DNA from: Gymnopilus junonius
Taxonomy: Eukaryota; Basidiomycota; Agaricomycetes; Agaricales; Galerinaceae
Length of the DNA stretch: 64,000 nt
Assembly: GCA_015501075.1 (NCBI GenBank)
Contig: JADNYJ010000082.1
Coordinates: 62,001-126,000, forward strand
Direction: 5' to 3'
The position numbers and the translations under genes are program-made. The notes under the pieces are model-generated. The model was not told where the DNA came from. It was given only the letters and a program-made list of their open reading frames with translations, and did no database searches. This document shows, piece after piece, positions 3,459 through 28,526 of the stretch; the first letter of the stretch is position 1; every line of letters begins with the position of its first letter.

Positions 3459-4187
3459 CATATATATTGATGATTGCACCAATTTTGAGCATCCTTTTGT
3501 CAGAAATATTGAATACCATTTTTGTTCTGCTGTCAATATGTCCTTCATATATATCCAACCACTGTTGTCTTTTTTTTGCCAGTGTATTACCAGGATTGTG
3601 CAGCTTGAATTATATGATGTAAAACTATTTTGTCTCCAGTCTAGAATGCCAGATAGAATATTGTTCATTATATCACATATCAAACTTTTCTTGTCAAGGT
3701 ATGTTACACTTCGACATGATTTTTATGCTAAAGTAACATACATGTGGCTTGGACAACATGGACATATCTGGGACACATCCAGATATAATTCTAATATGTG
3801 TGAGTCATATGCTCATCTGCCTAGCACATCTAGATGTAAGTCTGTGCCTTTTGTCAGTAGCCGCCGATCATACTGTCATAATTTATCAGGAACACAGCTT
3901 GCCCCCTATGTTATGTCTCCTTCTGATGGATTTGATATTGAGTTATCATATAGATTCCATTCACACACAAATATAAATAAATTTAATACACTTCAGACCA
4001 AGGGCAATCGCTACATCATGGCTTTCATGAATTTGTTTGACCTTGCAGATTTTCTTCCAGAGGGTCAATTAGCTGAGGTGGCAAGTAAGCATGGGATCAA
4101 GATATCAGTGATGAGACTGTTACATGGTTATGTGTGAAAACAGGCCATCCCCATTATTTTCGACCATCTCTATAAATTAATATAGGT
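3459..4187. other. Repeat-flanking region without a supported gene
   Basis: A long uninterrupted frame (about 3247-4137, plus strand) covers this stretch, but its translation has no motif, biased composition or family resemblance. It overlaps the better-structured small gene at 3091-3458. Confidence 0.35.
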
Positions 4188-5448
4188 TGTTGATAGCCTT
4201 CCCGAGCTTAAACATCCCGAATATACTCGAGAAAACCACATTTAAACATTAAAAGCTTAATATCAAAAGATATAATGATTATGATCACCTAGTAATCATT
4301 AATCATTTATTATAAGATACACAAGCGAATTACTACAGTCCTTACACACTAGTAGGGGCCTCGAGTTTATTTAAAATAACTACCAAGGGAGCGCGGAAAC
4401 ACGCACAGACAATGGGAACGACCTTTGACCCGATATAGACATGCGGAGCGACAGCCCAAACAAGTCAATTACCCTGAAGCCAGTGTAATCTATTTTTATC
4501 ATCCGGAGGAATGTAACCAGAAAAGGAATAATCCATGATGATCGACGTCGGAGCGGGTGCTATTTTTGGTAATATGAAGACGCGACGCAAGGATGCTCGT
4601 CCCCTCGTGTTCCCTCATAGAACTAATAAATATACACCTATCCTAGACACATTAGCAAGCCCCTGAGGACGTAGACAAAATCCTCTGTGAGGTAGACAAA
4701 TATTAAAGACGCTATAATGAACCAGCCGTTGCACGATCGCAACAGCAGGAATATTAATCCGATAAAATGCCTTATATGGCAATGAGATAAATATTCGGCG
4801 CTTGATGAATATGCCCAACCAATGGCATAATTCCCCTCACTCCGAATCGGACTAATGACGAGATAATTAATTACACAGCGCTTATCAAATTAGCTTAGTA
4901 AGATGCCCAGTAAAATAGTATAAAAACCCAGTAGAATTAGTGTAGAAAAGCAAGCAGACAGCACCCCTCGAGTCGTAGCAATACAATCGAGCGTCTGGCT
5001 TCTAAACTAGATAATAGAAAGACAATTGATTGATATAAAAGCGAGATAAGCTTCAGACAAACTTAGAATTGAGCTCAAATAAGAGATAGATTAAGCAAAG
5101 GCTTATTATTCAAGTCAGGACCTAGTTGAGTAGTTGGGAGTAGACAGAGCGTCACTCAGCTACAAAAGTACGAAGTCTTTTAGTTCAAAAGCATAGCCAG
5201 AGCCTAGTTTATCTCAAGAAGAGATCAGTCAAGTTTAGAGAAAGTTTCCAAGCCAGAAGTCAATTAAAAGCGATCCATTATCCAAAGAACCCCTACAACC
5301 CATTGTAAAACCCCATAAAAGCGAACTTAATTAAAAGACATTGATACTTACACTCCCCAGAACTTACACAAGTCAAGGGATATTTGTTGGGTTCAATAAA
5401 AGCGATCTATTTCGTTTTTTCATACCTACAAACTACCTAAACTTATCA
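4188..5448. mobile_element. Possible solo LTR (Gypsy-like)
   Basis: The block starts TGTTGATAGCC and ends ACTTATCA, so short inverted ends TGATA/TATCA are present. It has no coding capacity, a distinct base composition and a CCCGAGCTTAAACATCCCG opening of the kind seen in basidiomycete Gypsy LTRs. I see no clean 5-bp target duplication and no second copy in the window, so the call is tentative. Confidence 0.3.
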
Positions 5449-5462
5449 CCGTGATGTGTGAC

Positions 5463-6570: not shown

Positions 6571-6690
6571 CTAAAAGAACGATGTGTTACTTACGTAAAA
6601 GCATCATAAATGGACAAGGTTAAATTAGATTTGAGCATTCTGTGTTGTAGTGGTATAACATGAAAAGAGAGATCATCATCCGAGGATGAG

Positions 6691-7371
6691 GTGGAAGAAC
6701 TTAATGGACCTGTATTAGCACAGGACTGTAGACACATTTGTGCCCATTGCGAAGATGCTTTACAAAAAAATAAGATCCCCATATCATCTTTAGCTAACGG
6801 GATGTGGATAGGCAATGTGCCAAAGCAGCTTCAACATCTTACATTCACTGAGCAGATGCTGATAGCCCGTATACATCATAATAGATGTCTCGTCCGTGTG
6901 TTGTCGGGTCGGGCGAAAATGATCACAAACTGCATCATGTTTGCAAATCCTATGGCAAAAGTCTACACCCATCTACCACTGAGTAAGGAAGAAATTAGCG
7001 AGGTCTTAGCATTTGTATTTATCGGTCCTGCCAGACCTACTGAAGATGAATACAAGCACACTCCGCTATTTGTACAGTGGAATAAAGTGGCTGACGCCTT
7101 GGAATGGCTCAAACTGAATCACTCTGATTATGCTGACTTAGTTATATCACAAGAAAATCTTGATTCATACCCATTGGCTGGAGTACCAGTTATGGTGGAT
7201 TACAGGCACAATGATTCTGGATCAAATAAAATTGCCTCTGCCATGAGTAAGTTTGACAATGAGATCAAAGATGGCACTGAAAGCGGCGCTTGCCCTTTTA
7301 CTGTACATGGTCTGACCAGTGAAGAATATGAGAAAATAGATATGAAGGAGATTAAAATCAGAGCACTGTGA
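6691..7371 (+). pseudogene. Helitron polyprotein, N-terminal DUF6570-like part
   Basis: An open segment of 226 codons begins with a Cys-His cluster (QDCRHICAHCEDAL). It continues through PISSLANGMWIGNVP, LTFTEQMLIARIHHNR, AKMITNCIMFANP, and then EVLAFVFIGPARPTEDE with LEWLKLNHSDYAD. This is the layout of the DUF6570 domain at the start of fungal Helitron Rep-helicases. The frame ends at a TGA at 7369-7371, where the family reads on, so the break is mutational. The following segments in neighbouring frames continue the same protein. CpG is scarce here, in line with an old, mutated copy. Confidence 0.75.
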
Positions 7372-9170: not shown

Positions 9171-10467
9171 TTCTGGGCAACTGACATAGAAGACAAGAAG
9201 GGTGAGAGTGCCGAAGTACTGCACGAGATTAATGATAATTCAGCTGCTTTGATAAATTCTAATCAGGTTAAAAAGGAATACATAGATACATTACAGGATG
9301 AGCTATGTGAAAAGGTCATTATAGGATGGGAAGAAGGGTCATATATCATCAGATCAAATGTCGATGACTACAAATATTGACCAGATGTGTATTCTGACTT
9401 GAATTTATTTCAATGGATTCAGACATACACAAAAAGGAGGCAGCCCAAAAAAAGAGCCAAAAAGCTTAATGCTGGATCTAATCATGGCCATGAATGTAAA
9501 TCCTGGAGTATGACACATCATAAGTTTTTACCTGAACATCCTCTACATAATTTGCATGAGGTGGTGTGTGACATGAGCAGGTTGGATACTATGGTGCCCA
9601 ATTTTGTAGGTGGAAGCCTTGCTCGCTCTGATCAAGGTGACAGAGAGTATTATTGCATGACAATGCTTATGCTATTCAAACCATGGAGGGATGGAATATC
9701 TCTGAAGAAAATTGGAGAGACATGGGATGAAGCTTTTCTGGCATATAATTTTACTCCTCGTGATAGAAAGTATATGGCCAATTTCAATTTGAAATATGAG
9801 TGTTTGGATGAGAGAGATGATTATCATGCCCAGCTTCAAAAAACTATAAAAAAGGCTAGCATGCCCAACAGCTTTCGATATGATTCTGACAGATCTGATG
9901 ATGAGAATGACGGTTCATATATGGATGGTGGTGTGTATGAATATGTAGATGGTGATGATCCAGACCAGTACTCTCTGTCACCACAAGCAAGACTGAGAGC
10001 AAGGCAAAAGGAAGAAGCAAATAGGATATTACAGAATTCAGGCTGGGCCAAGTTGTGTCCAATGGTGGAGGAGAATATTGATAAGTTGAAGGATCTACCA
10101 ACAACAAAACTTTCATCAGGTGCATGGAAAAACATAGTGAGAGATTGCAGAGACTCTATACTGAAAGAAAGACAATGTAATTTAGCAGGCACCAGTAAAC
10201 AGCATGAAGCAGGAAATTCATCTCAATCTGATGGTTATACATTCAATCAAGTTAATATTGTAAACGCTGAATATCTTAGGCACAACTTCAAATCTGAAAA
10301 AGAACACAGTAATGTTATTATAAATGACATCATTGCGGATTTCATTTGAATAAAGAGCAAGAGCATGCATTCAGAATCATAGCAAACCATGCAGCCTCCG
10401 CGGCCCAGAACAGCTTAGAATGAAATTAGGGGTATGGGGGGTACTGGAAAATCCCAGGTCATCAAAG
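9171..10467 (+). pseudogene. Helitron linker and start of Pif1-like helicase
   Basis: An open segment of about 320 codons (9387-10349) holds a linker with an acidic region near its middle. After a stop it is followed by LNKEQEHAFRIIANHA and the Walker A motif GGTGKSQVIK (about 10437-10467). This is the N-terminal edge of the Helitron Pif1/RecD-like superfamily 1 helicase. The segment stops abruptly at 10467, where the KDZ transposon is inserted. The rest of the helicase resumes at 23924 with the duplicated ATCAAAG and then AVIEMFN in frame. Confidence 0.83.
10461..10467 (+). repeat. Left target-site duplication (ATCAAAG) of the KDZ element
   Basis: ATCAAAG directly precedes the inverted repeat starting CACATACAATAG. 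The same seven bases directly follow the right end at 23924-23930. Joining the flanks across one copy restores the helicase codons for QVIKAVIEM. Confidence 0.9.
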
Positions 10468-10827
10468 CACATACAATAGTGACCATCATCTGTGACACAC
10501 GGTTGCCCGGGGAAGTAAGACATCACAAACCCACAGCGCCAGCCGAAGCGAGTCAGATTTGATGGTCATCTATTTTGTGTGGTACGGCCGGAAAAGGTAA
10601 GACGTAGACACACAGCATGGTTCAGCCTGATCTGGTGGCTGAAATAGGTACAAATACGGCAACCGGATGGAAATATGATTGGGACCCGGAGCGCCGATGC
10701 TGTATTTATCTACAGGGCGAGTTAACTCAGCAACTGGATGGAAATCAGACACGGGCCCGGGGTGCTGATGATAGTATATTTCAATTATTTAGGTAGTGTA
10801 GTGATTCGGATGTCCGTTTTTCTTCAC
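10468..10827 (+). repeat. Left terminal inverted repeat of the KDZ element
   Basis: It begins CACATACAATAGTGACC and matches the reverse complement of about 23566-23923 with only scattered differences and small indels. It contains subterminal copies of a GGATGGAAAT plus GGGCCCGGGG-type motif, followed by GATGCTGTATTT or GATGATAGTA. Such repeats are often transposase binding sites. Confidence 0.9.
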
Positions 10828-10935
10828 CACGAAGATTTAATTTGACGCCCGACCATCATAGGGATCAAGGTCACCTAATCGTGTGAAAAATACAAAGTGG
10901 GGAAAATTTTTTGAACTTTCTGATTAGTACCCATC

Positions 10936-12176
10936 ATGGTTAATGTCAGTAAGCTCGCACTTGAGTTGACAGAGACCATCGCCATGTATATGCATGCCCA
11001 ATTCAAACAAAAAGTAGGTCCACATCTGGGCCATGTAAAAACACCATGCGATTTGGATCCTGGGGTGTTGCTAGAATGCGACTTGGCTGTTGCCATCCTC
11101 AGAGAAGCATATAACAACTGCAGTACATGACCACCCAGTATTCTAATTTAAGATACTCAATATTCTTCAGAAGCGACAGAATGGAACACCGAAAATTATG
11201 TCCAGGAACTCACGTCAAGGTGTACAGGATGTAACACCAAAGTGGAAGAGCAACTATGATGGAAATTTCCTCCCATTCATACCCCATCAGCATATGAACT
11301 TCAACCATGTATAGTCACTGATGTGGCGGAACATATTCTGGCATGGTATTTGCCAGGGTGTTAACACCACGACGTTTGGTCAGTCAAGCTATTTAAGATT
11401 CAGAGGCCGAATTTTATTTAAGCACTAGGAACAAATGTGGAAAGACCTTCAGTATTTGGAACGGTCCTTGAAAGTAAATGCAAGTACGAGTTGGAGAACA
11501 GGACTGACGTACTATAGAGGACAGGAAGGTTGGTTAAAGCAAGGAAGTGCAAGTCTAGCACCAGCATGGTTTCAGCAGGTGCATGAGGTATGGCCTCCGA
11601 TTTTTTGGAAGACCAACTAAAGATAAAATTACTCAATAGAAATCCAATGCCATGGAGGTGTCCTGTGAATTAAGGAAGCCTCATGCACTTGAATGGGTCA
11701 GAAGGAACATGGTAGGATCGGCCTTAATAGGGGGAATACTCAGCATCATCCATCCTGAACTTTACTGAGTTGGAGTTTGTGCTTGAGAAGAATTGATGAA
11801 TGCCCGGAGTCCATTACTCATGGGGTACATCTAGCTCATGTGCTCGGGTATGGACTTCACCATTCAGTGTGTTGACAGTCATTAGCAATCGAGAAATGCC
11901 CTTCCATCATGACAATGGATCAGCTCACCCATGGTTCGACATGTTAGTACCACTAGGTGCATATCAGCATGGCAGGATTGAATTGCCAGGAATCGGAATG
12001 AGGTTCAAATATGACCAAGGAACAGTCTTTGCACATTTAGGAAGACTTCTTCAGCATGGTGCGAATTGCTCGGAGACCGAGCTTGTATAGCATACTACAT
12101 GCGCGAGACTGTGATCAAAGAACTCAGACTAGATATGCCGTCATGGATGAATGTATCTTATTATCAGACGGAATGA
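10936..12176 (+). pseudogene. TET/JBP-type 2-oxoglutarate dioxygenase, decayed
   Basis: Enzymes of this family oxidise 5-methylcytosine or thymine in DNA, using Fe(II) and 2-oxoglutarate. The conserved C-terminal half is clear. LIGGILSIIHPELY (about 11728-11766) is followed by VISNREMPFHHDNG with the HxD metal ligands (near 11880-11925). Next come WFDMLVPLGAY, then YDQGTVFAHLGRLLQHG with the distal His. A shifted frame then gives GDRACIAYYMRE with the Arg expected for 2-oxoglutarate binding, ending WMNVSYYQTE and TGA at 12174-12176. Two in-frame TGA codons follow HPELY, at the second of which family members often have Arg, so CGA-to-TGA change is likely. At least two frameshifts add to the damage. 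The N-terminal part (10936-11620) is less certain. Confidence 0.8.
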
Positions 12177-12212
12177 TCATCTAAATTTATTTTGGCCCCT
12201 AAATACTTAAAC

Positions 12213-13330
12213 TACAGCCAATTCGTCGATATCTTCATTATCATCCTGGTCCGAGTTATCATCACCATATTCCTCACCATCACCGTCTTCTTCATCTTCC
12301 ATGTCCTTGTCTTCAAATAGTGACCTAGCAGACTGATCAGATCCAGAACTTTCATCAGAACTTCCAGGGTGAAAATCATCGGGCACCGACGTAGGTCGCT
12401 ACCACTGTCCTCGGAGCCCGAATCAGGTGGCGGAGTGCCAGAGTTCACTTGGTCTGGATGTACATACGAATGTTGTAAATGCGACGCTTGGGTCTTGGTT
12501 TCATTTCGATCCCACTGGACGTAATTTCGAGCATTTCTGGCGATGGCTTTCAAAATCCCATCATGAGCATCATGTCTAGGAATGCGACCGCGATATTCTT
12601 CTGGGAGGTGTTCGGTGTCCTGGAAAGGAATCCCATGCTTTGAATGAACTGAAACTCATAGAAGTGATTAATGTATGTTGGCGAGTCACCTGCAGAAGCA
12701 TGGGGGTGTCTGCATTTTCTCCAGCCACCAATAACAGTACTCGTTGGTAGAATCCAACAGTTCCTGGTCTTCACGTGCATTGAATTCAGAATTGACGGTG
12801 CCCGGGACCATATTATTTTCAGGTCCACAAGCTGGGTCCGTAGAGAATATATTGCAAAGATCTTGCAGTAGGTATGGGACTCGGACATGAAATCCATTGA
12901 TGGTGCAATATCCAATGTGAGCCAATGCTTGCTCCTACCCATTGTTAGTGTAAGCTATCCAAAGTAAGAAATTTTAGCACTCACAACTTCATCTTGCATA
13001 TTGAGCTGCCAGTTATAAAGTTTGTAACCCAAGTTTGCAGTCATGATAACATGCAAGGCTGTTCGGATGCGAGTCATATGAACATGAAGCTTGAGTTTGG
13101 CCTCTGCCTCTTGTATTTCATAGGATGAAGGATACTTGTCATCAGGCAATGAAGCAAAGAGAGAATGGGAGGCATAGTGGGATGGGGAAAGATAGATTTA
13201 CAGCATTATCAGTTCCAATCTCATCAGATTGGTCATGTGGATGTACAGTCCCAGATGCCGTGTATTGGACAGAAGGATTTCAAGCTTTTTAGTGCAATTG
13301 TCAATTGCATATTTTCAGCAGGTAATTTAC
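12213..13330 (-). pseudogene. Minus-strand gene or C-terminal region downstream of KDZ transposase
   Basis: Reading leftwards, segments include KLKLHVHMTRIRTAL with LGYKLYNWQLNMQDEV, then an intron with gtgagtgct. Next come ALAHIGYCTINGFHV and VPYLLQDLCNIFSTD, then GIPFQDTEHLPEEYRGR, and a last exon with NARNYVQWDRNE. A strongly acidic tail (EDKDMEDEEDGDGEEY) ends at a stop near 12213-12215. It could be the C-terminal tail of the KDZ transposase or a separate accessory gene; I do not recognise it. Frame changes between segments show damage or unresolved introns. Confidence 0.5.
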
Positions 13331-16300
13331 CGTACAAGATTCCACGTAGATGTAAATGCAGTATTTAAACGTTTGAACATTGCTTCCGAGACATGCCCAA
13401 GCTCATTCCACATATCAATTTGTTTCTCTGCATATGCACGGTGGCCGGATGATAGCTGAGTTGCAGAGTCCCGACGACTTTGCCATGTTGTGGCCATGTA
13501 CATGTAAAATCTTACGGTCCACTCCATTTCATGTTTGGTGAGTTCCAACTCTTCGGCCTATCTATTTTTCTGAGCTCGTGCATGCAGCCAATTCAAGCGA
13601 AGAACTATAAATCGGAGTGAGTGCTGGAACCATAATTTTATTTGCACTTACACTCTGTAGAATAGAGGTCATCGTCTGCAGTGTTGGGTGACAAACGGGT
13701 GTTACTCCATAACCAAGACAACCAGTCTGAACTCTGTCCGCTACTGTTGGGAGCACTTACAGCAGTACTCACTCGGCAGTCGTCCTTAGTAAGTAATGGG
13801 TATTGAAGCTCTAGCTCCGTCCGGGGGCCGAGAGTGTATAACACTTGGCAATTCTGATTGTAAAGCCTCCTCTGTAGTGTGCATACTTTTTCCAAAATGT
13901 TTGCACCTTCCCAGGCTCTTGTTTTCTGAGCGATTCCTTCAGCTGGCCAGACTCTGTTCTTGAATTGCCAAGAAAGTTGGATCATGGCACCCTGAACAGT
14001 TTCTAAGCAATCTTCGGCATGCCCTTTGCGTATATCCAGCTCTTTCTCTCTCAGGGCAATAATGCTAGCTCGATGCTCCATGGTGAGCAATGAAAGAAAT
14101 TCATCCGGAATTTGAGATGGGAAAGGAAGAACTTGTCCATCGGGGTCCGCTTTTGAAATCGACGGAGCTCCAGGTTCGCCCTTATCTCCATCTTGAGGAT
14201 CAAGATCATCAGTTATGACTGAATCCTGGTCATAAATACTGTTCACTAAGTCCTCCTCGATAAATTCCATTGCTGTATTGGTGAAAGCTTCAATTGTTTT
14301 TCGCAAATGCCTTCGGCGATTGACTAAATCAAGCTTCTGGGATGTAGTCGGCTGCTGACCTAAAGATCTCGCAAATGATCACACTTCAAGTCTAGTTATA
14401 TATGTTAACTGTTATACTCAAAAAGAAGGAACACAAATTTCATACTGGGTCTCTTCAATCTTTAACCCTTTCGATAGCCAAGCAGCCTGACCAGTCTTTC
14501 CTTTCTGCTTCAATTCAGCCTCCGATAGCTTCAACTCAATTTCACGGCGTGACAAGGCTTCCGTAAATAGCTTCAATGTCAATTTTGACAACTAGAAAGA
14601 AATGGCTTACATTTGACCACCTTGCTCTGCATTACATCCATATGGGTAACATCTTCATGTCGCTTAGCCTCGGCATCTTGGATTTCCTTTTCCCACTCAG
14701 GAAGAAGATGTTGCAGAGATAACTGATGTACACCATCATAATATTCCAGGCTGGCCTTTTGTTCAGTGACTGCACGACCAAATTTCTTACAGATGGTAGC
14801 AGCTAGTCCACATTAAAAATTGTAAATGCACAAAAACAAATAAGTATCACATACCCGTATTAATGATTTTCTTCCAGTTAGAATCACCCATATGGTCATC
14901 CAGTATCTCAGTTCGGTGCGCCATTGTTGCACCATGGGTACTCCTAGATGTTTCATTCAGAACAGCCCAAAGCATCTCGAGAATCTCCCCATCTATTATT
15001 CCTACCCCGGGAATGTAGGTAGTTGCAAAGCGGTAAAGACACTCTTCTTTATGACCATGGACATGAAATAAACCTATAGCAAATATAATTGTTAGTCCGT
15101 CACGCTTTGACAATCATTTGTGGTCTTTGAATCGTTGAGCGAACTTGACACAATATTGACAGTTAACATCGTAAATGTCGAGCAGTTCATCTATTTCTTC
15201 CATATGAGTTGTCTTCATTGCCTGGCTGTTGGAGTAGAACAGTAGGCTACAAGTCTTCAGCTCTCCGACACTTTGTCAAACAAATCAGTGATCCGAAGTA
15301 TACTTCTAAATAAATCGGTAGACCGAAGGACGTTGTGAGAGATGTCGGCGATCCGAATCGTGTGGTGGAAATGTCAGTAATCCGAGACATGTGTATATAT
15401 CTGGGTGTCAGAATTATGAAGAAAAGTGGGGCTTACCTGGGCATAACGTGGTGCCAGGCTAATTGCCTCCTTCAGATGCTCAGAATAGTCTGCCTGCCGT
15501 GTCATGAATGCCTCCCCATCTGTGAGGTGCACATCGTCTTCCGCATTTCTTGGCGCCAAGTGATCGGCTTTGAAATTTCCATCTGCTATGAAACTCCGGC
15601 GGTACAGTATGCTATTCAACATCAGTGACTTGGTCTTTCAAGACTTTATTGCATACCGGTTGGTATCCTCCTTCCAATTGTCGGGAAGGTTAATCCCTGG
15701 CTGGGGACAAGCAGCGCAGAAAAGTGCTAATTTACCGAGATGCTGAAGTTCCTCGGCCCCCACATGGGGTTTCAAAATTGATTCCTGATCTGTTACTGCA
15801 TTGGGCTCATCGTGTGCTTGGCCGTGCATCTTGTAAAGTTTGATATTTCGGTATTCCCTACTTAATCGTCAGAGCTCCGCATATCTGTTCAGCACCGACT
15901 TCGGGAGTGCAGGACATGTTATCCGTCGCAACTTCTGGTAATACTGGTAGGCGATGTTTTACATTCTAGGTTAGAGAGCCGAAAGTCTGTGAGGACATTG
16001 AAAGTAAAGACAGTCCTGATTCTGTCGAAGCTGGCAGGAAAGAGACCCATCTCGAGGAACAATATATCATCTTGGCCCTCCGACATGTGCAATGTACCAC
16101 AGGTAAATGATGGACACCGAAACATCGATAATTGCAATGAATGGATTTCCACTTTGATCTCTGGAACTTGGTTGCGAACCAGATTTGTTTGTGAATTCTT
16201 GAGATCCTCTAAGCTGTCTTCTTCTTCATTGCCTTCATCCTCGGCATCCGGGCCAACCTCTTCAAATGCGGTGGCATAGAAGGAATCCTCAAAGGTGGTT

Positions 16301-17049
16301 GGAGGATTGGGACCTAAATCATATCCTTCTAATGGCTGCGTCCCACCTCTGACATCATCATTCAAAGGTAGTCCAGCATTTGATGTTGACTCTGGACAAG
16401 GCAATCCATTATGCCCAAGATAGAGCTTGACACCAGTTTCCCATAGGGCTCCGGAGTGATAGTATTGACCATTCCATCATTCCACACGATGGTAAATGAG
16501 CAGAGCGTGCCTGTTCTGGCAACATAGGCCACATAGCAATTGAGAGCCCACACAGTCTCGACAGCGCCATTTACCTGGGGAGCTTTTGCAAGACTGACAC
16601 TTTGCATCCGTAGTAGTTGGAGCTGCCATTTCCAAGATAGTTTTGAGGTACTCTGGTCGACGAGGTAACCACTCGCGCAAGTAGTCATTTTGCATCTGCC
16701 TCATTATCAGCAATCCTTTCATAGGTCCTGGATAGATAGAACATACTTTTGTGCCCTGTACATTTGGAAGGTTCTGCAGGTAACCAATAACATCATCTTC
16801 TGTTGGATCGCCAGTGTAGTCTGCAGGCTCTGGAACAATGTATTCCAGATGTTGAACTTGATGCTGCACTGCATGAGTAACCCTGTCCTTCTTCTTTACC
16901 TTCACCTCCTCAAACCATCCACTAGACACTGGGTCATCATCTGAGTCAGAGTCGACTACTCGAACACACCTGCTCATCGATGAATTTGGGAGGACGTCAG
17001 AGTACAGTGGTAAAAACAGATACCCTATATTCAATCTGAATGTTTTCAC
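13331..17049 (-). pseudogene. KDZ transposase with CxC2 cysteine cluster
   Basis: The N-terminal exon has the CxC2 cluster (CQSC, then KWRCRDC, LLCGLCCQNRH). It is followed by WNGQYYHSGALWETG and LYLGHNGLPCPES. The KDZ core follows: LFPASFDRIRTVFTF (about 16000), ADGNFKADHL with the first catalytic Asp (about 15575), IYDVNCQYCVKF with the second (about 15150), and GEILEMLWAVLN with the catalytic Glu (about 14950). Helical C-terminal segments include ALREKELDIRKGHAED and HEMEWTVRFYMYMATTW. The protein would cut and paste the surrounding element. An in-frame TGA at 16477-16479, just before WNG, breaks this copy unless recoded; other exon joins were not fully resolved. Start is at 17049 or the downstream Met near 16977. 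Confidence 0.88.
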
Positions 17050-17630
17050 TGATTAAATGATAAGGAGAAGGCATCCATAAATGTACTTGCATCTGTCAAG
17101 GGGTCAGAAGTTCAGATTGGATGATTTGGATAATCTAAAATGTCTTTAACTAACCACTGAGAGAAAGTTTGCTATTTTCAGAAGCTTCATCTACTTTATC
17201 TACGTATTTAAGCTCAGATTCTGCATGGTGATAATTTCACTGCTGCTCATGTTGATAGCACTTGAAATTGGTAAGAGACTGCATAAATAGTATTCAAATA
17301 ATGTAAGAAGCATATGTGAAAAGTATTGAGCGTATTGAAGAATATTTGGACCCATGAGAGTACTTTCTTCTGCTCATCATTAATGATGATGACGAGACAC
17401 TTTCCACAATGGTTACCTCCAAAAGGAAGTTATGGTGATGATGTATGATGTCAATGCTTGATTTAGGCTTGCCGACTGCGGGTGTCGATCAGAGTCTCAA
17501 AATCTGGATCCATGTGTAACCGAAATTAAAAATAAGTTAATTTCCCCACAGTGATCAGGCATTGATCCGAGCAATATCAGATCGACATTAAAAAGGGGAA
17601 TCGACATGCAGATAGGTGTTAGCAACCATG
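17050..17630. promoter_or_regulatory. Divergent intergenic region of the KDZ element
   Basis: About 580 bases lie between the start of the minus-strand transposase and the plus-strand homeodomain-like gene. No gene is seen. It may hold both promoters; no specific motif is conserved enough to name. Confidence 0.4.
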
Positions 17631-19584
17631 GTTGAGTCTGCAACAAATTCCCCAGCATCTGGTGTCAATGAAATATTATCAAACATACCAGCACATCCGT
17701 CGAACGGTGAACATGTGCCATCTACATCGCCAGATAATCAGGGAAGCCCTCCGTCAAATGAGCAGGACACGGAGGCGGGCGCTGAAGGAAATGAAGGGGT
17801 GGAAGCTGAGGGAGATGATGGGGAGGAACTAGAACCTGACCCCTGACTTTGACGATGCACGACCCCAAGGACAGATTTGGACAGCCAAGGAAAAAAAGGT
17901 ATTGGAAGATTGCCTGCCAATATACAGAGCAACTCCCCGACTCAAGAAAGGAAAGTACATTGCCACGGAAGTCACGAAGGCCATCAAGAAGACGTGGTCG
18001 GGACGATACGGGGCAAAAACATTGAGGAAAGACCAGGTTCGGTTGGAAGAGTGGAAAAAGAAGAAACAGGTGAGTGCGGTGGCCATATTAAACGTTCTCG
18101 GCTGACCGATGGTAGCAAATTTTCAACTGGTTTTCGAATCATGGGGGAAGTGGACGCAATTTAAAAATTCCCAGATTCACTTTGAAGGTTACATTTGACA
18201 GTGTCCTGAAGGAGCTGAAGCAGAGTGAAATTATCGCAGTTGCAAAGAGTTTGGCTGGAACGGAGTCCGCAGATAGCAAAATTTACATTCCATTTTATTC
18301 AGCAGCAAAGCAGGCCGTAAAGGAATCATTGACGGAGGCCGAAATAGAGCAAATAAACAATGAAGTTGAACGGCAGCAAAAAGAAGGTGTACCAAAGAAA
18401 AAGCAGGCTGAGTAAGCAACATGCTTCAACTGTCATTCATAATGATCAAAGATACTGCAGAAATGCCAAACGTTATGGGAAGAGAATACTCTGATCAATG
18501 GACACCTTGCGATTTCGGAGCATGAGAATGAGAATGCTCGGATTTGAGTGCCACCATGACACAAAGGGAAAGATGTCATACTCGGTGTCCGTCATCCAAT
18601 ATTCTGCATTGCTGCGAAGGGTCTTCTAATCATTTGCATCAGGTACAACACAAATAGTCTCCAGGGAACAAGTGGGAATATTCCTTCATTTGGCCAGTAC
18701 AATCCTAAGGCTTTGAAGGAGTTCACCAAGTGCTGGATTAAGTACATAAAACATGTTGCTGCCTTGGAGAACAGGACTAAACAGTCGGAGAAAAAAACCA
18801 CGTTCTCAGACGCCGACATCGAATTTTCGAAAGGCGGATTGCCTTTGGTTCCGAAGCCCATTTGCAATGAAAATGGATTGGAAACTAATGTGATTCAAAT
18901 AGACATCATTTGGGGTTATGTCAGGAAACACTATGGTACACTCCAGTCCGTATTCAGAGATGCAATTGCTTAGTTTGAGTTTCAGAACTTGCGCGTGGAA
19001 TTCCGGGCCCCATACCATTCAAGCAAATAATCCCCGAATGGATAGAATTTGTGTCCGCTACTGATCTCCCTCCAAATGTCCCCTTCAAAGAAATCAGTCG
19101 CTATTCGGCTGCTGAAACACATAATATTCTCAAGCTTTGGTGCCATTGCCAGGGGCGCTCCGAAATTCCATTCAGATGGAAGAACGTGGTGGACTCCAAG
19201 AAGATAACTATTTCAGCAGAATATCCAGATGGCATATTCAATGGTTGGAAGGAACCTGAAAAAATACTGTCGAAAAAGGTTGTTCCAGAGGAACCAAGTG
19301 ATGATGGTCAGGATTCGGACCCCAGCATAACCGAAGAATCACAGCCTCCGACGCCAATTCAAAACACTGCCAAGAATGCGGACACTGTGTCTCGTAGAAC
19401 ACCATTTGACACCGATCCGGAGACCCACGTTGATCAGATGTCCAGTCCAACTGTACTAAATACCAGTCCAGACAAGGGACCAGGCAGAATTCGGCCTAGA
19501 GCAAAGGGAGCCTATGTAACTCCAGCTCAGAGTACAGACACCTCTCCAGCACCCATGGATGAGACAGAGAGCCAGCAATTGTGA
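17628..19584 (+). pseudogene. Homeodomain-like DNA-binding accessory protein of KDZ element
   Basis: Exon 1 starts at the ATG near 17628 and has an acidic, low-complexity N-terminus. It is followed by QIWTAKEKKVLEDCLPIY, SGRYGAKTLRKDQ and WKKKKQ. An intron (gtgagtgcgg to ggtag, about 18069-18115) leads to QIFNWFSNHGGSGRN, which resembles the WF-N recognition helix of a homeodomain-like fold. KELKQSEIIAVAKS and an Arg/Lys-rich stretch follow. After a second intron (18413-18459) the frame meets a TGA at about 18489. Later open blocks (for example WIEFVSATDLPPN with SRYSAAETHNILKLW at about 19037-19150) belong to the C-terminal part, ending at TGA 19582-19584. I infer DNA binding; the family name is not known to me. 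Confidence 0.6.
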
Positions 19585-19831
19585 TCACAAACAAAGCCAC
19601 CACCCCCAAAGAAAGGTCCTGGTTGACCGAGAGCTAAAAAGACTTAATGTTCTCAAACCAAAATCCTGGCACTCCGAAACCTCAACGATAATGAAATTTA
19701 AATAAAATATATATACACAAAAGTAATTAAATCGAGATGTATATATATTTATGCGGTGGAGAAGGAAGAACATTGTGCAAATGACCAGAGCTAAGATGAA
19801 AGAAAAAAAAGCGGCACCCCAAGAACAAAAT
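19585..19831. other. Short convergent intergenic gap, AT-rich
   Basis: It separates the ends of two convergent genes and contains runs such as ATATATATACAC; no gene seen. Confidence 0.5.
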
Positions 19832-21974
19832 CTACCAACGCATCTTTCCTCCCTTAGCAGCCTTACCTTCCCCATGCTTCTTCTTGGGTGAAGGTGCGGC
19901 CTCCGCAACAGGGCTCAACTTTCTCTTCTTCGCGCCCTCCTCATTTTCATTGCCGGCATGCTCTGATGTGCCCACTTGTTGCACCTTCCTTCCATTCCTT
20001 GTTCGATTTGCAGCAGTGGACGCGACGGGGTCTTCTGGCGAAACAGACCAATGTGAAGCACTGGATGGCACAGGGGACGGCGCAGGTGATGCCTGGGGGA
20101 TAGTGGGGGGTGAATGGGGGGCTGCAGGAGGGACGGGCACCGGACTTGCACTCCTCGACATCTCTGACTCAGAAGTGGCCTCCGAGTCACTTAGATCCAA
20201 AGTCTTCATTGCGCGATGAGGGGGGGGTGGACCTAGAGACCATTCACGACTTGAGGCTGGCAACTGATGGGGCAATGGCTGGGGTGACATTGAGGGAAGA
20301 GATGGAGCGGTCGCCAACGATTGCTCCTCAAGGCGCTTAGCCATCTCCAGGAGTGGGGCCAGCTGTTGGTCGAGGTAAGGGGGGATTACCTCAAGATGCT
20401 CAAGGAGCAGATGCTTGTCCTCCACCCTCCTCGCTATCTCCGATTCCATTATTGCCTGCATTGACTTGAGCTCTCGGTGCAGTTCAATGTTCTCCTCCTT
20501 CATCTGGCAAATGCCAAGTATGAGCTCAGCGATGACATCGCCGAAGGTGATGGGAGCTGCGGCTTCTGACAGACTTCCAGGGGCGGGGACCAACGTCAGG
20601 CTTGCCTTGACTTCCAGGATCCTTTCGAGGGCATTTCCGAGGGGAGCATGGAGAGAGATGGGGACTGGGTCATTGAGGTTGCATTTGGTCTTCCTCTTGA
20701 AACAATACCAGCATGAGGCGCCAGTACCCCCTTGCTTGACAGTTGACTTCTTGACGTAGCAAGATCGTCGACCCTTTTCGCAAGGACCGCACTTCTCCTC
20801 CACATCCGCATATTCGTTGAGGTCAGGCGGCTCCAATGGCTTGGTCTTCGGCTTCGGCCCATCCGCTTTTTTTCCTTTCACTCACGCTCGACCAACTTCC
20901 AAGGGCTTGGCATCGTCTTCTCCATCCAAGCCCTCCCCTTCACCATCATCATCGCCCACCCCTTCACTAACATCATCGTCGTCACTGATGATTGGTTTTG
21001 ACTTGGGAGGCGGCTTACTGTGGATGCCTGGCTGCATCCGAGCTGTGCGGCTGACTCGTGGTTTTGCTGGGGCCTTCGTCGCCTTAGTTGGACCGGCCTC
21101 CGGAACTGGTGACTGCTCTCCCTTGCCCTTTGATCCCTCGGCCTCCATTGTCCCCTTCGTCTTGCCCTGCCCAGCGTCTTTGCCCTTCCCTGCATTGGCC
21201 TCCAATTTCTTTCTTGCTATCGCGGCCTCCGATTTCTTCCCTTGGCCTGTCTCTGATTCCTTCGACTTCGACTTCGATCTCCTCTCGCCTTCCCCACTTC
21301 TGCCTTCGGCCTCCGCTCACTTCCTAGGCTCTCCACCTGTCTCTGATTCTTTCGACTGCGACTTCGATCTCCTCTTGCCTTCCATACTTCCTCCTTCGGC
21401 CTCCGCTCACTTCCTAGGCTCTCCACCTGTCTCTGATTCTTTTGACTGCGACTTCGATCTCCTCTTGCCTTCCATACTTCCTCCTTCAGCCTCCGCTCGC
21501 TTCCTGGTCTCCCCACCTGCTGATTCTTTTCCAACATTCGCGTCCACTTTCTTCATCCCTTCAACTTCTGACCCGGTGCCATGTTTCTTATCATAAGAGT
21601 ACACTGTCTTCTGAATGGAGGAGAAGTTGGGTTTGAGGGTGGTGGTCCCATCGGCGTTTGTCATCTGGCCGTCCTCGAAAGCTTGGATCAGGTAGTCGAA
21701 GAGACGGAAGTGGTCGTCTGCCGGGATTTGCTCGGCCACCTTCGATGTTTTTTCCTGTACAATTGTAAAGTGAATAATAAAATAAGTAATAAAAATGATG
21801 TTTAGAAAAGAAATTTACCATGTCCCGGTACAATGCCTTCTTGTTTTTGTTGAACTCCTCCTCGGAGTGCACAAATTGGCACAGCTTTGCCTCCCAGGCA
21901 TCCATCATCTGGTTGGCCTTCATTCGGAGAGCGGCCATCTCCTGTTCTGTGGCATTCTTCATGTCTGTGGCCAT
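19832..21974 (-). pseudogene. Cys-cluster, coiled-coil protein with 30-residue repeats
   Basis: The gene starts at the ATG ending at 21974 (MATDMKNATEQEM). It splices out an intron (about 21752-21819) and continues AEQIPADDHFRLFDYL. A Lys/Arg/Glu-rich region follows, built on a 90-base tandem repeat (about 21219-21510). The last 349 codons (20881-19832) contain CGPCEKGRRSC and CWYCFKRKTKC, a Zn-cluster-like pair. A coiled coil (MKEENIELHRELKSMQ), a Pro/Ser-rich linker and a basic tail (KKRKLSPVAEAA, SPKKKHGEGK) follow, as in nuclear proteins. Stops inside the repeats and a frame change near 20880 break continuity. I infer a DNA-binding accessory protein of the element; the family is not named here. 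Confidence 0.6.
21219..21510 (-). repeat. 90-bp tandem repeat, about three copies
   Basis: The string GCCTCCGCTC starts at 21309, 21399 and 21489, exactly 90 bases apart, with a diverged copy before. On the minus strand each unit encodes a 30-residue block containing SKSQSKESETGGEPRK. Unit ends carry in-frame stops in two copies. Confidence 0.85.
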
Positions 21975-22440
21975 GGTTGGTATAAGTGAACATGAAGACA
22001 GTATGAGAGATGGAAGACAAGAAGGAAGAGCGCGTCGTACTGGTTCAACCATGTGCCAAACAGGAACAATCGGTCATGTGATGCCGAAGTCTGAACTTCA
22101 AAGTATTTTGATCATCGACTAGATAATGATCCCTGTTTCCTTTCATTATGCTTCGGTCACTGCTCAATTTTGGAGAGCGTTCAAATTCCAAGATGAGTGA
22201 TGATCTCGAGAATGCAGTACATGGTGAGGTACATATACTGTATATAAATTCATTTAAGCAGAGCTACATCAGCTGCTCATATAGTGATGCCCATTGCGGG
22301 ACTTAACATGCAATTGTTTACCTACAAGATCGTCCTTTTAAGCTTACCAGTAAGCAAGGTGTACGATTTGCCACCCTCAAACTAGGTAAATAGAAGTGAC
22401 AGAAAGCTATTCCAACTGACATTCATGCCATTTACAATTA
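21975..22440. other. Intergenic stretch inside the KDZ element
   Basis: This lies between the divergent starts of the Cys-cluster gene and the acidic gene. No coding signal was recognised. Confidence 0.4.
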
Positions 22441-23430
22441 GATGAAGATCCACAACCCGTCCTGGTCTCTAATATTGCTGACAGCCCCAATAAATTTTCA
22501 GTCGCAGCCTCTGCCAATATTCAGAAAGAGCCTGCTTCAGAACGGCGCCACCAACGATTGACAAAGGATGACGTTAAATCATTGTTGGAGGATCCCACAC
22601 CACCTCCACAACGTCGAAAACATTTAACCAAGGAGGACATTCTGGAATTATGGGAAGATCCTATTTCAGAGGAGGATCATTTGACCGAAGACCATAAGTT
22701 AGCAATGGGTGGGTGAATAGTTGGTTGACAGGGGCTGAACTGACTTGCGCTTACCAGAGCCAGAGATGGAGGCTGACAGTAGTGCAAATAAGAGCCTCTC
22801 CGAATCGAACTTTGATGTCGGCCTCCGCAATTCTCACTCTGAGACAGTAAATCATGGCCTCCACGAATTTCGATCTGAGCCAATCTCAATAAATCATGGC
22901 CTCCCTAAGCACCTTCCCAATTTGCCTGGTCTTGTGAATATATGCTGGAGGACCACAGTCCACCAATCTCCAACTCAAACCACTGCATGCCTCCTCCCGA
23001 AGCAAGGCTTACTTCTAATTGCAACTATTCCTCTCTCCCATTGCCGCTAAAGCCTGAAGCACCTCACGAAGCAGCCTGTCAAGCCAGCGACATTGAATTA
23101 GACTCCACTAATTGCATGTCAAACTTTGATCCTCCCTTTACATTTGTGAGTATTTTTCTCCGAGATGTCTATCACCATCTTAAAGGTATTTGATAGGCCT
23201 ACACAGAGCAGCAATTGCATAATGTGCACCTTGGGGTTTTGGACTCTGATTTGGATAACCCCACCTATGAAAACAAATTGCATGTCCTATCCAGTGCTCG
23301 CCGAAATCAACTGCACCTGGAATTACATAAGTCAAGGTACTTTCTGATGTTCATGGAGACCTTGACATGCTGGAGGCCCTTCTACGCCCCTATGTTTGAT
23401 TTTGCAGGACAGATAGTGGTTTTCTAATCC
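22441..23430 (+). pseudogene. Unrecognised acidic gene next to right inverted repeat
   Basis: An exon (about 22441-22716) opens after an acceptor ttacaattag. It carries two similar blocks, RLTKDDVKSLLEDPTPPP and HLTKEDILELWEDPISEE, suggesting an internal duplication. A second exon after cgcttaccag (about 22758 on) encodes EPEMEADSSANKSLSES and further Ser/His/Pro-rich text, and fragments continue to about 23430. No known domain is visible. Its position beside the terminal repeat and between element borders marks it as part of the transposon. Confidence 0.4.
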
Positions 23431-23565
23431 GGTTGAAGCTCATAATACATTGTAAATACATTTTCGAATAAATGAGCTGCCTATAATCTGCATTGAATGG
23501 CACCCGAGAGCCAGCCAGCCCTGCACCTAAATACAGCATCGGCGCCCCGGGCCCGTGTCTGAGGT

Positions 23566-23923
23566 GAAGAAAAACGGACATCCGAATCACTACTCTAAAT
23601 AATTGAAATGTACTATCATCGGCGCCCTGGGCCCATGTCTGATTTCCATCCGGTTGCCTGAGTTAACTCGCCCTGTAGATAAATACAGCATCGGCGCTCC
23701 AGGTCCCAATCATATTTCCATCCGGTTGCCGTATTTGTACCTATTTCAGCCACCCAGATCAGGCTGAACCATGCTGTGTGTCTACGTCTTACCTTTTCCA
23801 GCCGTACCACACAAAAATAGACGACCATCAAATCTGACTCGCTTCGGCTGGCGCTGTGGGTTTCGTGATGTCTTACTTCCCCGGGCAACCATGTGTCACA
23901 GATGATGGTCACTATTGTATGTG
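23566..23923 (-). repeat. Right terminal inverted repeat of the KDZ element
   Basis: This is the reverse complement of 10468-10827, ending CTATTGTATGTG. Beyond its inner edge (about 23500-23570) another copy of the GGGCCCGGGG-GCCGATGCTGTATTT motif lies in the same sense, so motif repeats extend inward on this side. Confidence 0.9.
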
Positions 23924-25656
23924 ATCAAAGCTGTGATAGAAATGTTTAATAGAAGAAAAGAATCCCATAGATTTACAGTTGTGGCTCCTACCAGCATGGC
24001 TGCTGCTCTATTGGGTGGTTCCACTTATCACTCCTTGCTCGGAATTCGCATGGCAGATGGGAAAGAAGGTTCTGTCTTGAAAGTCAATGCCAACACTATT
24101 AATGAATTGCGTTCCAAATTAGCTGGTGTAGAGTACATATTTTAGATGAAGTTTCAATGGTTGGCTGTAATGAGCTATATGCGATAAGCGCCAGACTTGC
24201 TGATTTGACTAATGAGCATGACAAACCATTTGGAGGAATGAATATTATATTTGCTGGGGATTTTGCTCAGCTTCCACCTGTCGGAAAGCCTGCTCTCTAC
24301 AGTAATGTCTCTGTACAGGATCTCACTGATATGTCCCTAGAGATCAGGAGATTATGATTGGGAAGTTATTGTGGCACCAAGTCACAACTGTGGTAATATT
24401 GAAACAGAATATGAGACAACGAAGTCAGACAGAGGATGATGCAAAGTTCAAACAGCCTAGAGAACATGCAGTATGCATCTTGTACAGAATCCAATATTGA
24501 GTCTTATGATCACATATCGTTACATGCTGCAGGGTGAATCATCCTAAAAATAAAACTTTAGAAATGTTCCATCATTACTGCATGGAATATACAGAAGGAT
24601 GAGATTAACAATGTGGATGTGTACGCTTTGCCGACGATATAGGTGAAGACCTGAAGGAATTTTATTCTAACAATTCGCTAGGGAAGATCCAGATGATATA
24701 TCACATCAAGGAAAGAAGAAACAACAAAACCAAGAAGAAGTCTATCAGATTGCTCTCAGATAGGACAAAAGATATACTGTGGAAGTCAGACCCTTCTGTC
24801 AGTGATCATATAGCAGGGAAACTATCTTTGTGTATTGGAATGCCAGTAATGATACGTTACAATGATGCTACTGAGTTATGTATAACAAAAGGCCAGGAAG
24901 GCCATGTATGCAGATGGGACAGTTCAGTCGGTCTGACGGAAAGGAACATCTTGACACCCTGTTTGTAAAGCTTCAGAATCCACCTAAGGATGTTAATATA
25001 CCTGGTCTACCATGTAACATTGTGCCTATACCAAAACGACCGTCTCCATTAAATGCAGTATGCCAGATGGCAGTACTTTATTGATCAAGCACACACAAGT
25101 GCAAGTACTCCCGAATTTCTCAATGACGGACATTGCTAGTCAAGGAAAAACTCGACCATACAATGTAGTTGATCTAGGTCACTGTAAGACATTTCAATCC
25201 TATTATACATCCCTATCGCAGAGTGCTACAGCAGCGGGCACTCTGATAATGCAGGGTTTTGATGCAGAAAAGATTACTCAAGGTTTGCAAAAAAAAAATG
25301 GATATCTGCACCAAGAGTTTAGAGAATTAGAGATACTGAACGAAATTACATTACTCAGGTACAAGAATAAATTACCCAGACATGTTTTGGGATTAATAAG
25401 GAATCCCCTGATAAGGAAATTTCAGGAGTGGAAAGGGATGGACTGCCAAGGACAGGATTGGCATATGCATCTGAGGTGGGATGATGCTGAGCCAAAACTT
25501 TGTACTCCATCAGACAATGCATTGTGGAACGAAAAGGATAACATGACTGCAACACTGATGGCCGTTGACTTTGATAAGAAAAAGAAGAAGCATAAAAAAA
25601 CTTGCACAGAATACAGAAGAAAAAATACAAGTGACCAAGCATGTGAGACAGACTAA
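23924..25656 (+). pseudogene. Helitron Pif1-like helicase, continuation after insertion
   Basis: The segment starts with the duplicated target ATCAAAG. It continues AVIEMFNRRKESHRF, VVAPTSMAAALLGGSTYHSLLG (about 23960-24045), Walker B DEVSMVGCNEL (about 24148) and GDFAQLPPVGKPAL (about 24258-24300). A C-terminal part holds GMPVMIRYNDATE and KGQEGHV (about 24840-24910). The last open block (25060-25656) ends with Lys-rich sequence and TAA. Several frameshifts occur between 24145 and 25060. In the intact protein this helicase unwinds DNA during rolling-circle transposition. Confidence 0.85.
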
Positions 25657-27978: not shown

Positions 27979-28526
27979 ATGGGCATTCTAATACTAGTCG
28001 CGAAGCTGGAAAAGCATCGTCCTGCCACACAAAGCAGTGGCCTGCTAAAACAAGTTTATCAGCAGATGATGGAAGACTTCACTCAGAAGAACTCAGTTCC
28101 AAATATGGAACTGAAAGACCTCTTCAATAGCATTTGCACCACATGGGCTGCCCAATTTGGGCACCTTAAGGGCATAAGCAACCCAAGTGTGGCATGTTCT
28201 ATGTGCCAAAGCAGCTCAACCCACCTAAGGATAGCTGGCCCAGAAACCAACAGGCTAGCAATGTGAATGCACAGCATAATACTGCAATCAAAGGGAAAGG
28301 TCCTGAACCCTGCCACTCTGATCAGCAGAATGCCAGAAGTAATTCTGGCAGTTTGCAGAGAAAGGAGTTTTCCAAGAGGAAAACCTGCTGTACCAGCCAA
28401 CAACCAAAGTCAGCATGCTTTGTTGAGGACTCTGATGACAAGCCCTTCATGCTCACATCATTGGCGCAACTGATGCCATTGATCCCTGCCCCCACTACTC
28501 AAAATGTCATTGACATTAGTGGGTGA
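27979..28526 (+). pseudogene. Copia gag remnant
   Basis: Open pieces (27979-28266 and 28194-28526, different frames) contain LLKQVYQQMMEDFTQ and LKDLFNSICTTWAAQFG, then ending text rich in Ser/Gln. A zinc knuckle is not clear. Position just before the protease and the overlap of frames suggest a decayed gag region of the element whose pol follows. Confidence 0.45.

What the first reader, a model, noticed from the sequence alone, without database searches (positions are those of the whole stretch)
10461..23930. Intact borders of a 13.5-kb KDZ transposon inserted in a Helitron helicase
About 360-bp inverted repeats, a 7-bp direct repeat ATCAAAG and exact restoration of the helicase text GTGKSQVIKAVIEM across the gap define the element to the base. 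Complete borders of large fungal KDZ elements with cargo are rarely laid out, and the nested order dates the insertion after the Helitron.
Basis: seen in the sequence. Interest (0 to 1): 0.85.

Follow-up and report, generated by a model that had tools for sequence, protein, structure and literature searches.

The report
TET-carrying KDZ transposon inside a Helitron
In a mushroom genome, a 13.5-kb jumping gene that carries remains of its own DNA-demethylation enzyme sits, with base-exact borders, inside another jumping gene; it is a clear new example of a kind already described, and this copy looks broken.

Summary
Window 10468-23923 (13,456 bp) has 361-bp terminal inverted repeats (347 identical positions) flanked by ATCAAAG. 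Of seven related Helitron places, five span the site, and all five lack the element and carry ATCAAAG once. One of them, C18, reads a 739-aa PIF1-helicase frame across it. The host is Gymnopilus junonius.

This is a TET+ KDZ transposon, a kind delimited by Kojima 2025 (PMC12730594). Its 7-bp duplication and CA..TG ends match his Kyakuja; his two Laccaria families have no inverted repeats. Two further ORFs of unknown function travel with the family (ORF B: 14 contigs, 11 with its ends).

Limits: this copy lacks about 370 and 355 bp present in 6 of 6 compared copies, one loss inside the catalytic domain. Of three copies with both flanks readable, only this one has a target duplication. C591 carries the same insertion. 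Copies differ mainly by CpG transitions. New member of a known kind.

The parts
10461..10467 (.). target-site duplication, left copy (ATCAAAG)
   Evidence: sequence; present once in the 5 spanning empty Helitron sites
23924..23930 (.). target-site duplication, right copy (ATCAAAG)
10468..10828 (+). left terminal inverted repeat, 361 bp, begins CACATACAATAG; holds two 41-bp direct repeats at 76% identity (10659, 10730)
   Evidence: the left-type end recurs on 8 further contigs
23563..23923 (-). right terminal inverted repeat, 361 bp
   Evidence: right-type ends on 12 further contigs, those of C610 and C131 partial
10468..23923 (.). whole KDZ element, 13,456 bp
11839..12063 (+). TET/JBP dioxygenase fragment (PF12851 positions 70-142 of 164)
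   Evidence: PF12851 E 2e-13; 10 other contigs over the cut-off, 9 of them with this family's ends
12212..17052 (-). KDZ transposase gene region, several exons; about 370 bp missing at 12651/12652 and about 355 bp at 15237 relative to other copies; a stop splits the CxC2 stretch that is open in C212
   Evidence: ORFs; span inferred from C212 ORFs; deletions
14877..15275 (-). KDZ catalytic-domain match (PF18758 positions 88-217, one TGA inside)
   Evidence: E 8.7e-24; C212 matches from position 48
15946..16074 (-). CxC2 cysteine-cluster match
   Evidence: PF18803 E 1.9e-9
18600..22147 (.). 3.5-kb cargo segment, found in the opposite orientation with the same breakpoints in copies C108 and C610
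18560..19584 (+). cargo ORFs A (18560-18973 and 18979-19584, different frames), no family match over a cut-off
19832..20881 (-). cargo ORF B, 349 aa, with a C-x2-C-x6-C-x15-C-x2-C-x6-C cluster resembling Zn2Cys6
   Evidence: PF00172 only weak, E 0.018, 15.5 bits against a cut-off of 21
21246..21519 (.). 90-bp tandem repeat, 3 copies, inside the cargo segment
6664..10467 (+). 5' part of the host Helitron gene (DUF6570 in 6664-7371), left of the insertion
   Evidence: longer open reading in C18
23931..28055 (+). 3' part of the host Helitron, PIF1 helicase continued, to the likely Helitron 3' end at 28055

Best explanation
Window 10468-23923 is one copy of a TET-carrying KDZ cut-and-paste DNA transposon of the mushroom Gymnopilus junonius. 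A KDZ transposase with a CxC2 cysteine cluster would bind the 361-bp terminal repeats and cut at the CACATA ends. It joined the element into the PIF1-helicase part of an older Helitron, and repair of a 7-bp stagger left ATCAAAG on both sides. The family carries a TET/JBP dioxygenase, probably to oxidise 5-methylcytosine on its own DNA and escape silencing, plus two ORFs of unknown function, one of them a Zn2Cys6-like candidate DNA-binding protein. This copy is probably disabled by internal deletions and a stop. Shown: borders, duplication, empty sites, KDZ, CxC2 and TET homology, recurrence of the cargo, deletions, CpG-biased differences. Inferred: the transposition chemistry, the counter-silencing role, the role of the cargo.
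For: TIR and TSD. Five spanning empty sites, 5 of 5 with one ATCAAAG. KDZ PF18758 E 8.7e-24, CxC2; in copy C212 KDZ E 1e-36 and CxC2 E 4.5e-21. TET/JBP in the window copy E 2e-13; in copy C92 a stop-free 151-aa stretch matches CcTET (7vpn) at E 3.7e-19 with the H-x-D and distal H kept. The ends occur on 18 contigs, and the 17 apart from C591 show different 20-bp flanks. Cargo ORF B occurs on 14 contigs, 11 with this family's ends. CpG C-to-T rate 0.235 against 0.0125 elsewhere among 7 copies. Literature: 7-bp TSD and CA..TG ends in TET+ Kyakuja (PMC12730594); mobile KDZ elements with 139-241 bp TIRs in Cryptococcus (PMC12810828, passages).
Against: Only 1 of 3 copies with both flanks readable has a target duplication; C108 and C92 have unlike flanks, their left flanks lying in a high-copy repeat that does not continue in their right flanks. 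14 of 18 end-bearing contigs show one end only, some cut by contig ends, others truncated. No copy's transposase was shown to be whole (stops counted may lie in introns; C212 has long open stretches but lacks the right part at its contig end), so present activity is unsupported. Kojima says his two Laccaria Kyakuja families have no TIRs. The clade (Kyakuja, Dileera or Zisupton) was not tested by a tree.
Confidence: 0.93

Rival explanations
1. The Helitron carries the KDZ element as passenger: after the insertion the composite Helitron moved by rolling circle, giving C801 and C591 as two loci.
For: C591 has the same insertion in the same Helitron, and its left part differs structurally from C801. 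Substitutions are about 1% in the Helitron part (51 over about 5,000 sites) and 0.38% in the KDZ part (13 of 3,439).
Against: C591 has no substitution against the window over 1,924 sites from 12000 to 13923, as expected of an allele or a duplicated contig. The stretches compared on both contigs are repeats, so the locus cannot be told, and C591 ends at window 13923.
Confidence: 0.2
2. The TIRs belong to two separate end fragments, and the stretch between them is a pile of unrelated repeats rather than one transposon.
For: 14 of 18 end-bearing contigs show one end only, and two of three copies with both flanks readable lack a duplication.
Against: The same inner parts recur between the same ends on C108, C610 and C92, with the 18600-22147 segment inverted in C108 and C610 and with inserts and a loss in C92. 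The 5 spanning empty sites lose the whole stretch at once and keep one TSD copy.
Confidence: 0.02
3. The two internal deletions are assembly drop-outs and this copy is complete.
For: The assembly has homopolymer-type indels, visible in C591. The two gaps are of similar size.
Against: C591 also lacks the first stretch, though it may be a duplicate of the same locus; it is too short to test the second.
Confidence: 0.1

Closest known systems
TET+ Kyakuja transposons of Agaricomycetes (Kyakuja-1_LB, Kyakuja-2_LB; Kojima 2025, PMC12730594; abstract, sections 18 and 34, part 1 of section 24, and passages seen)
   Same: KDZ transposase with a TET/JBP gene in one element; 7-bp TSD; 5'-CA..TG-3' ends; Agaricales host; the only PDB match of the TET stretch is CcTET, which Kojima places near the AG type
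   Different: 361-bp TIRs here, none in the two Laccaria families; two further ORFs; Gymnopilus is not named in the main text (Table S1 not seen)
KDZ1, KDZ2 and KDZ3 of Cryptococcus neoformans (PMC12810828, passages seen)
   Same: large (9-11 kb) KDZ elements with long TIRs (139-241 bp); cysteine cluster with KDZ
   Different: 8-bp TSD for KDZ1 and 4-8 bp for KDZ2 and KDZ3; CxC1 rather than CxC2; TET occurs there only in a reference title
Zisupton and TET+ Zisupton (as described in PMC12730594)
   Same: KDZ superfamily, TIRs, TET gene in some families
   Different: 8-bp TSD against 7 here

Membership tests
KDZ superfamily | KDZ catalytic domain (PF18758) in the transposase | tested here: met
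   window 14877-15275 (-) E 8.7e-24; C212 E 1e-36
KDZ superfamily | CxC-type cysteine cluster with KDZ (frequent, not universal; recalled) | tested here: met
   CxC2 E 1.9e-9 in the window, 4.5e-21 in C212
KDZ superfamily | complete catalytic residues and a working transposase | not tested
   the residues were not traced; the window copy has two deletions, one shortening the KDZ match
TET+ DNA transposon | TET/JBP gene between the transposon's ends, in several copies | tested here: met
   PF12851 over cut-off on 11 contigs, 10 of them with this family's ends, 4 of these with both ends
TET+ DNA transposon | iron-binding H-x-D...H retained | tested here: met
   copy C92 against CcTET; not checked in the window copy
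Kyakuja clade | 7-bp TSD | tested here: inconclusive
   exact in the window copy with 5 empty sites; absent in C108 and C92
Kyakuja clade | 5'-CA..TG-3' ends | tested here: met
   CACATACAATAG or CATATACAATAG at 21 of 21 ends printed
Kyakuja clade | no TIRs (stated for two Laccaria families; not a definition of the clade) | tested here: not met
   361-bp TIRs
Kyakuja clade | transposase groups with Kyakuja in a tree | not testable with these tools
   no labelled reference transposases at hand; supplements not available
Zisupton clade | 8-bp TSD | tested here: not met
   ATCAAAGC could be read as 8 bp at this site only by counting the element's first C as target; that C is present at 21 of 21 ends
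Helitron (host element) | pfam14214 plus pfam05970, the rule used in PMC8290104 | tested here: met
   C18 copy: PF14214 E 7.1e-12, PF05970 E 3.6e-30, in separate open frames

The most novel reading that the evidence does not exclude
The family has built a self-contained anti-silencing module: a TET dioxygenase plus a private Zn2Cys6-like protein that could bring it to the element's long repeats, with the cargo block able to invert and still be mobilised (C108 and C610 share one inversion at different sites).
Probability: 0.12. Interest if true: 0.65.

Novelty: new member of a known kind. Interest (0 to 1): 0.42.

Why it matters
It gives a base-exact TET+ KDZ element with five empty sites in one genome, so end recognition, target duplication and the fate of CpG sites can be compared copy by copy. 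It shows that a TET+ KDZ element with a 7-bp duplication can have long terminal repeats. Although the family encodes a TET enzyme, three of its four copies with both ends are CpG-poor (observed/expected 0.32-0.37, the value for C92 including foreign inserts; the window copy has 0.63 and the whole window 0.57). That is a handle on whether such enzymes really protect the transposon.

Tried and rejected
Chance inverted repeat: rejected. Two unrelated end fragments: rejected by the empty sites. Dating by TIR divergence: rejected, since left and right TIRs are told apart by nine alignment columns near the inner edge (a 4-5-bp indel and single bases), seven of them in 9 of 9 left against 11 of 11 right ends, the other two nearly so; part of the difference is therefore older than the insertion. 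Cargo identity: protein searches found no relative at E 0.001 for ORF B (capped to 7,999 candidates) or for 201 aa of ORF A, and Pfam only matches below cut-off; structure prediction was not run, because only near-identical copies were at hand. The 18600-22147 segment as a nested transposon with its own repeats: the best inverted match between its ends was 15 bp at E 0.36; its DNA was found on contigs with this family's ends except C444, C506 and C815 (C815 has a KDZ match). Empty sites for C108 and C92: none found; left flanks fall in a high-copy repeat, right flanks match only themselves, but only 40 of 139 and 40 of 75 candidates were scored. C479, which has a right end, showed no left end in the 4 kb fetched around its TET gene. 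My notes hold two slips that are corrected here: ORF A is on 13 contigs, not 12, and C591 can only be tested for the first deletion.
Full report
Observation. The element runs from 10468 to 23923 (13,456 bp). Its ends are 361-bp inverted repeats with 347 identical positions, 10 mismatches and 8 gap positions, flanked by ATCAAAG at 10461-10467 and 23924-23930. Similarity stops sharply inside the repeats (18 of 100 positions identical in the next 100 bp). In 197 random 400-bp pairs from the window the best inverted score was 28 against 630 here, and random 7-mers agreed in 16 of 200,000 draws.

Empty sites. A search of the window's own genome (58.0 Mb, 898 contigs) with the left flank gave seven other places. 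Five of them (C81, C175, C18, C519, C668) align across the junction over about 840 bp at 94.4-97.5% identity and contain ATCAAAG once. C391 ends at the site and says nothing. C591 carries the insertion. In C18 a 739-aa frame runs across the site and matches PIF1 at E 3.6e-30; upstream in C18, in other open frames, lie DUF6570 (E 1.1e-39) and Helitron_like_N (E 7.1e-12). The host element is therefore a Helitron, and the KDZ element came into this copy of it. Homology of C81, C175 and C519 to the window ends at base 28055, followed by unlike flanks, which marks the Helitron's likely 3' end.

Host. A protein search with a stop-free transposase stretch of copy C212 returned records named Gymnopilus junonius whose contig lengths (59134, 235068, 77229, 26969) equal those of C131, C479, C92 and C367. 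The species belongs to the Agaricales.

Contents. On the minus strand lies the transposase: CxC2 (E 1.9e-9) and KDZ (E 8.7e-24, one TGA inside, which may be in an intron). Copy C212 shows the same parts more clearly (CxC2 4.5e-21, KDZ 1e-36). On the plus strand at 11839-12063 lies a TET/JBP fragment, PF12851 E 2e-13. Of 20 PF12851 matches listed in the genome, 11 are over the cut-off; they lie on 11 contigs, 10 of which carry this family's ends. The stop-free stretch of copy C92 matches the solved Coprinopsis CcTET at E 3.7e-19 and keeps the H-x-D and the distal H. This TET gene was missing from the finding as given and decides what kind of element it is.

Cargo. The right half holds ORF A (plus strand, 18560-19584, two frames) and ORF B (minus strand, 349 aa at 19832-20881). 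ORF B has a C-x2-C-x6-C-x15-C-x2-C-x6-C cluster; Pfam's fungal Zn2Cys6 model scores it 15.5 bits against a cut-off of 21, so the label is a lead only. ORF B was found on 14 contigs, 11 with this family's ends; ORF A on 13 contigs, 10 with the ends. The exceptions in both cases are C444, C506 and C815, whose ends were not looked for by hand. Neither ORF has a relative at E 0.001 in the large protein search. The cargo is thus a regular part of this family.

Other copies. The ends occur on 18 contigs: 4 with both ends (C801, C108, C92, C610, the last cut by its contig end), 5 with the left only and 9 with the right only (the search calls its counts lower bounds). The window copy lacks about 370 bp at 12651/12652 and about 355 bp at 15237 that 6 of 6 compared copies have (C108, C92, C610, C674, C367, C212). 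The second loss shortens the KDZ match, which starts at model position 88 here and at 48 in C212. C591 shares the first deletion and ends before the second. Copies C108 and C610, at different sites by their left flanks, both carry the 18600-22147 segment inverted with the same breakpoints, while C801, C92, C674, C149, C540 and C68 have the tested junctions direct. C108 and C610 are each other's closest pair among the long ones (2.25% over 13,444 sites). The inverted form seems to have multiplied, or the copies recombined.

Results against the simple picture. Of three copies whose two ends and flanks could be read, only the window copy has a target duplication. In C108 and C92 the left flank lies in a high-copy repeat, by shared contigs the same one at different places, and the right flank does not continue it. 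Recombination between copies would explain this, but it was not shown. C591 holds the same insertion in the same Helitron but with a different left part; I read it as the other allele or a duplicated contig, and a Helitron-borne second copy is not excluded.

Decay. In 20 of 22 terminal repeats (C131 partial and the cut right end of C610 left out) departures from the majority are 315 transitions and 19 transversions. In the left 2.2 kb of 7 copies (C24 and C591 left out), 216 of 290 C-to-T changes fall in CpG, at a rate of 0.235 against 0.0125 elsewhere; there are 132 other changes, 121 of them reverse-direction transitions that may be misassigned; TCG is not favoured. This fits deamination of methylated CpG. 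Kojima notes hypermutation at TCG in Pucciniomycotina and none detected in Agaricomycotina; the present counts do not separate slow decay from hypermutation. The window copy is the CpG-richest of the four copies with both ends (0.63 against 0.32-0.37, the value for C92 including foreign inserts), which suggests that it is the least decayed of them.

How it works. By established knowledge of DDE transposons, the transposase would bind and cut the ends and join them to a staggered target, with 7-bp repair. That TET removes silencing marks from the element is Kojima's proposal, and he states that the function is not experimentally validated.

What is known. Iyer et al. 2014 (recalled; seen only as a reference in other papers) named KDZ and its link to TET/JBP. 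Kojima 2025 delimits TET+ Kyakuja elements with 7-bp TSDs and CA..TG ends but no TIRs in two Laccaria families. Long TIRs are known in Cryptococcus KDZ1-3 (139-241 bp), and TIR motifs of KDZ and Plavaka elements were characterised in Marasmius oreades (the supplementary figure was not seen). The listings of my searches on KDZ, Kyakuja, TIR and Gymnopilus showed no title or abstract that describes this family; they cover open-licence papers only, and the two listed papers that name G. junonius were not opened. I therefore file it as a new family of a known kind, probably Kyakuja by TSD and ends, clade not tested.

Noticed in passing
window ~4109-5451: End of a high-copy repeat (39 other matches listed apart from C591's Helitron part, 26 of them at 97-99% identity) that interrupts the left part of the Helitron; C591 has about 2.3 kb of other sequence at this place.
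   Followed up: partly
window 28055: Homology of three other Helitron copies ends at the same base after a CCAC...GTGG hairpin-like stretch, so this is probably the Helitron 3' end; it is followed by another repeat with 32 places listed.
   Followed up: partly
L013:3602-4054: In the C92 TET copy the residue aligned with CcTET Gly331, reported as important for 6mA recognition, reads S, while Asp337 is kept (alignment; numbering from PMC12730594 passages).
   Followed up: no
L042 and L051, C668:29481-31447: A right-end fragment of the same KDZ family lies directly beside the start of Helitron homology on C668, the contig of one of the five empty sites, so the two families meet at a second place.
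   Followed up: no
window 21246-21519: 90-bp tandem repeat inside the cargo segment; matches of other copies overlap there, which suggests varying copy number.
   Followed up: no
G000: 79 KDZ-domain matches listed in this genome, most on contigs without this family's ends.
   Followed up: no
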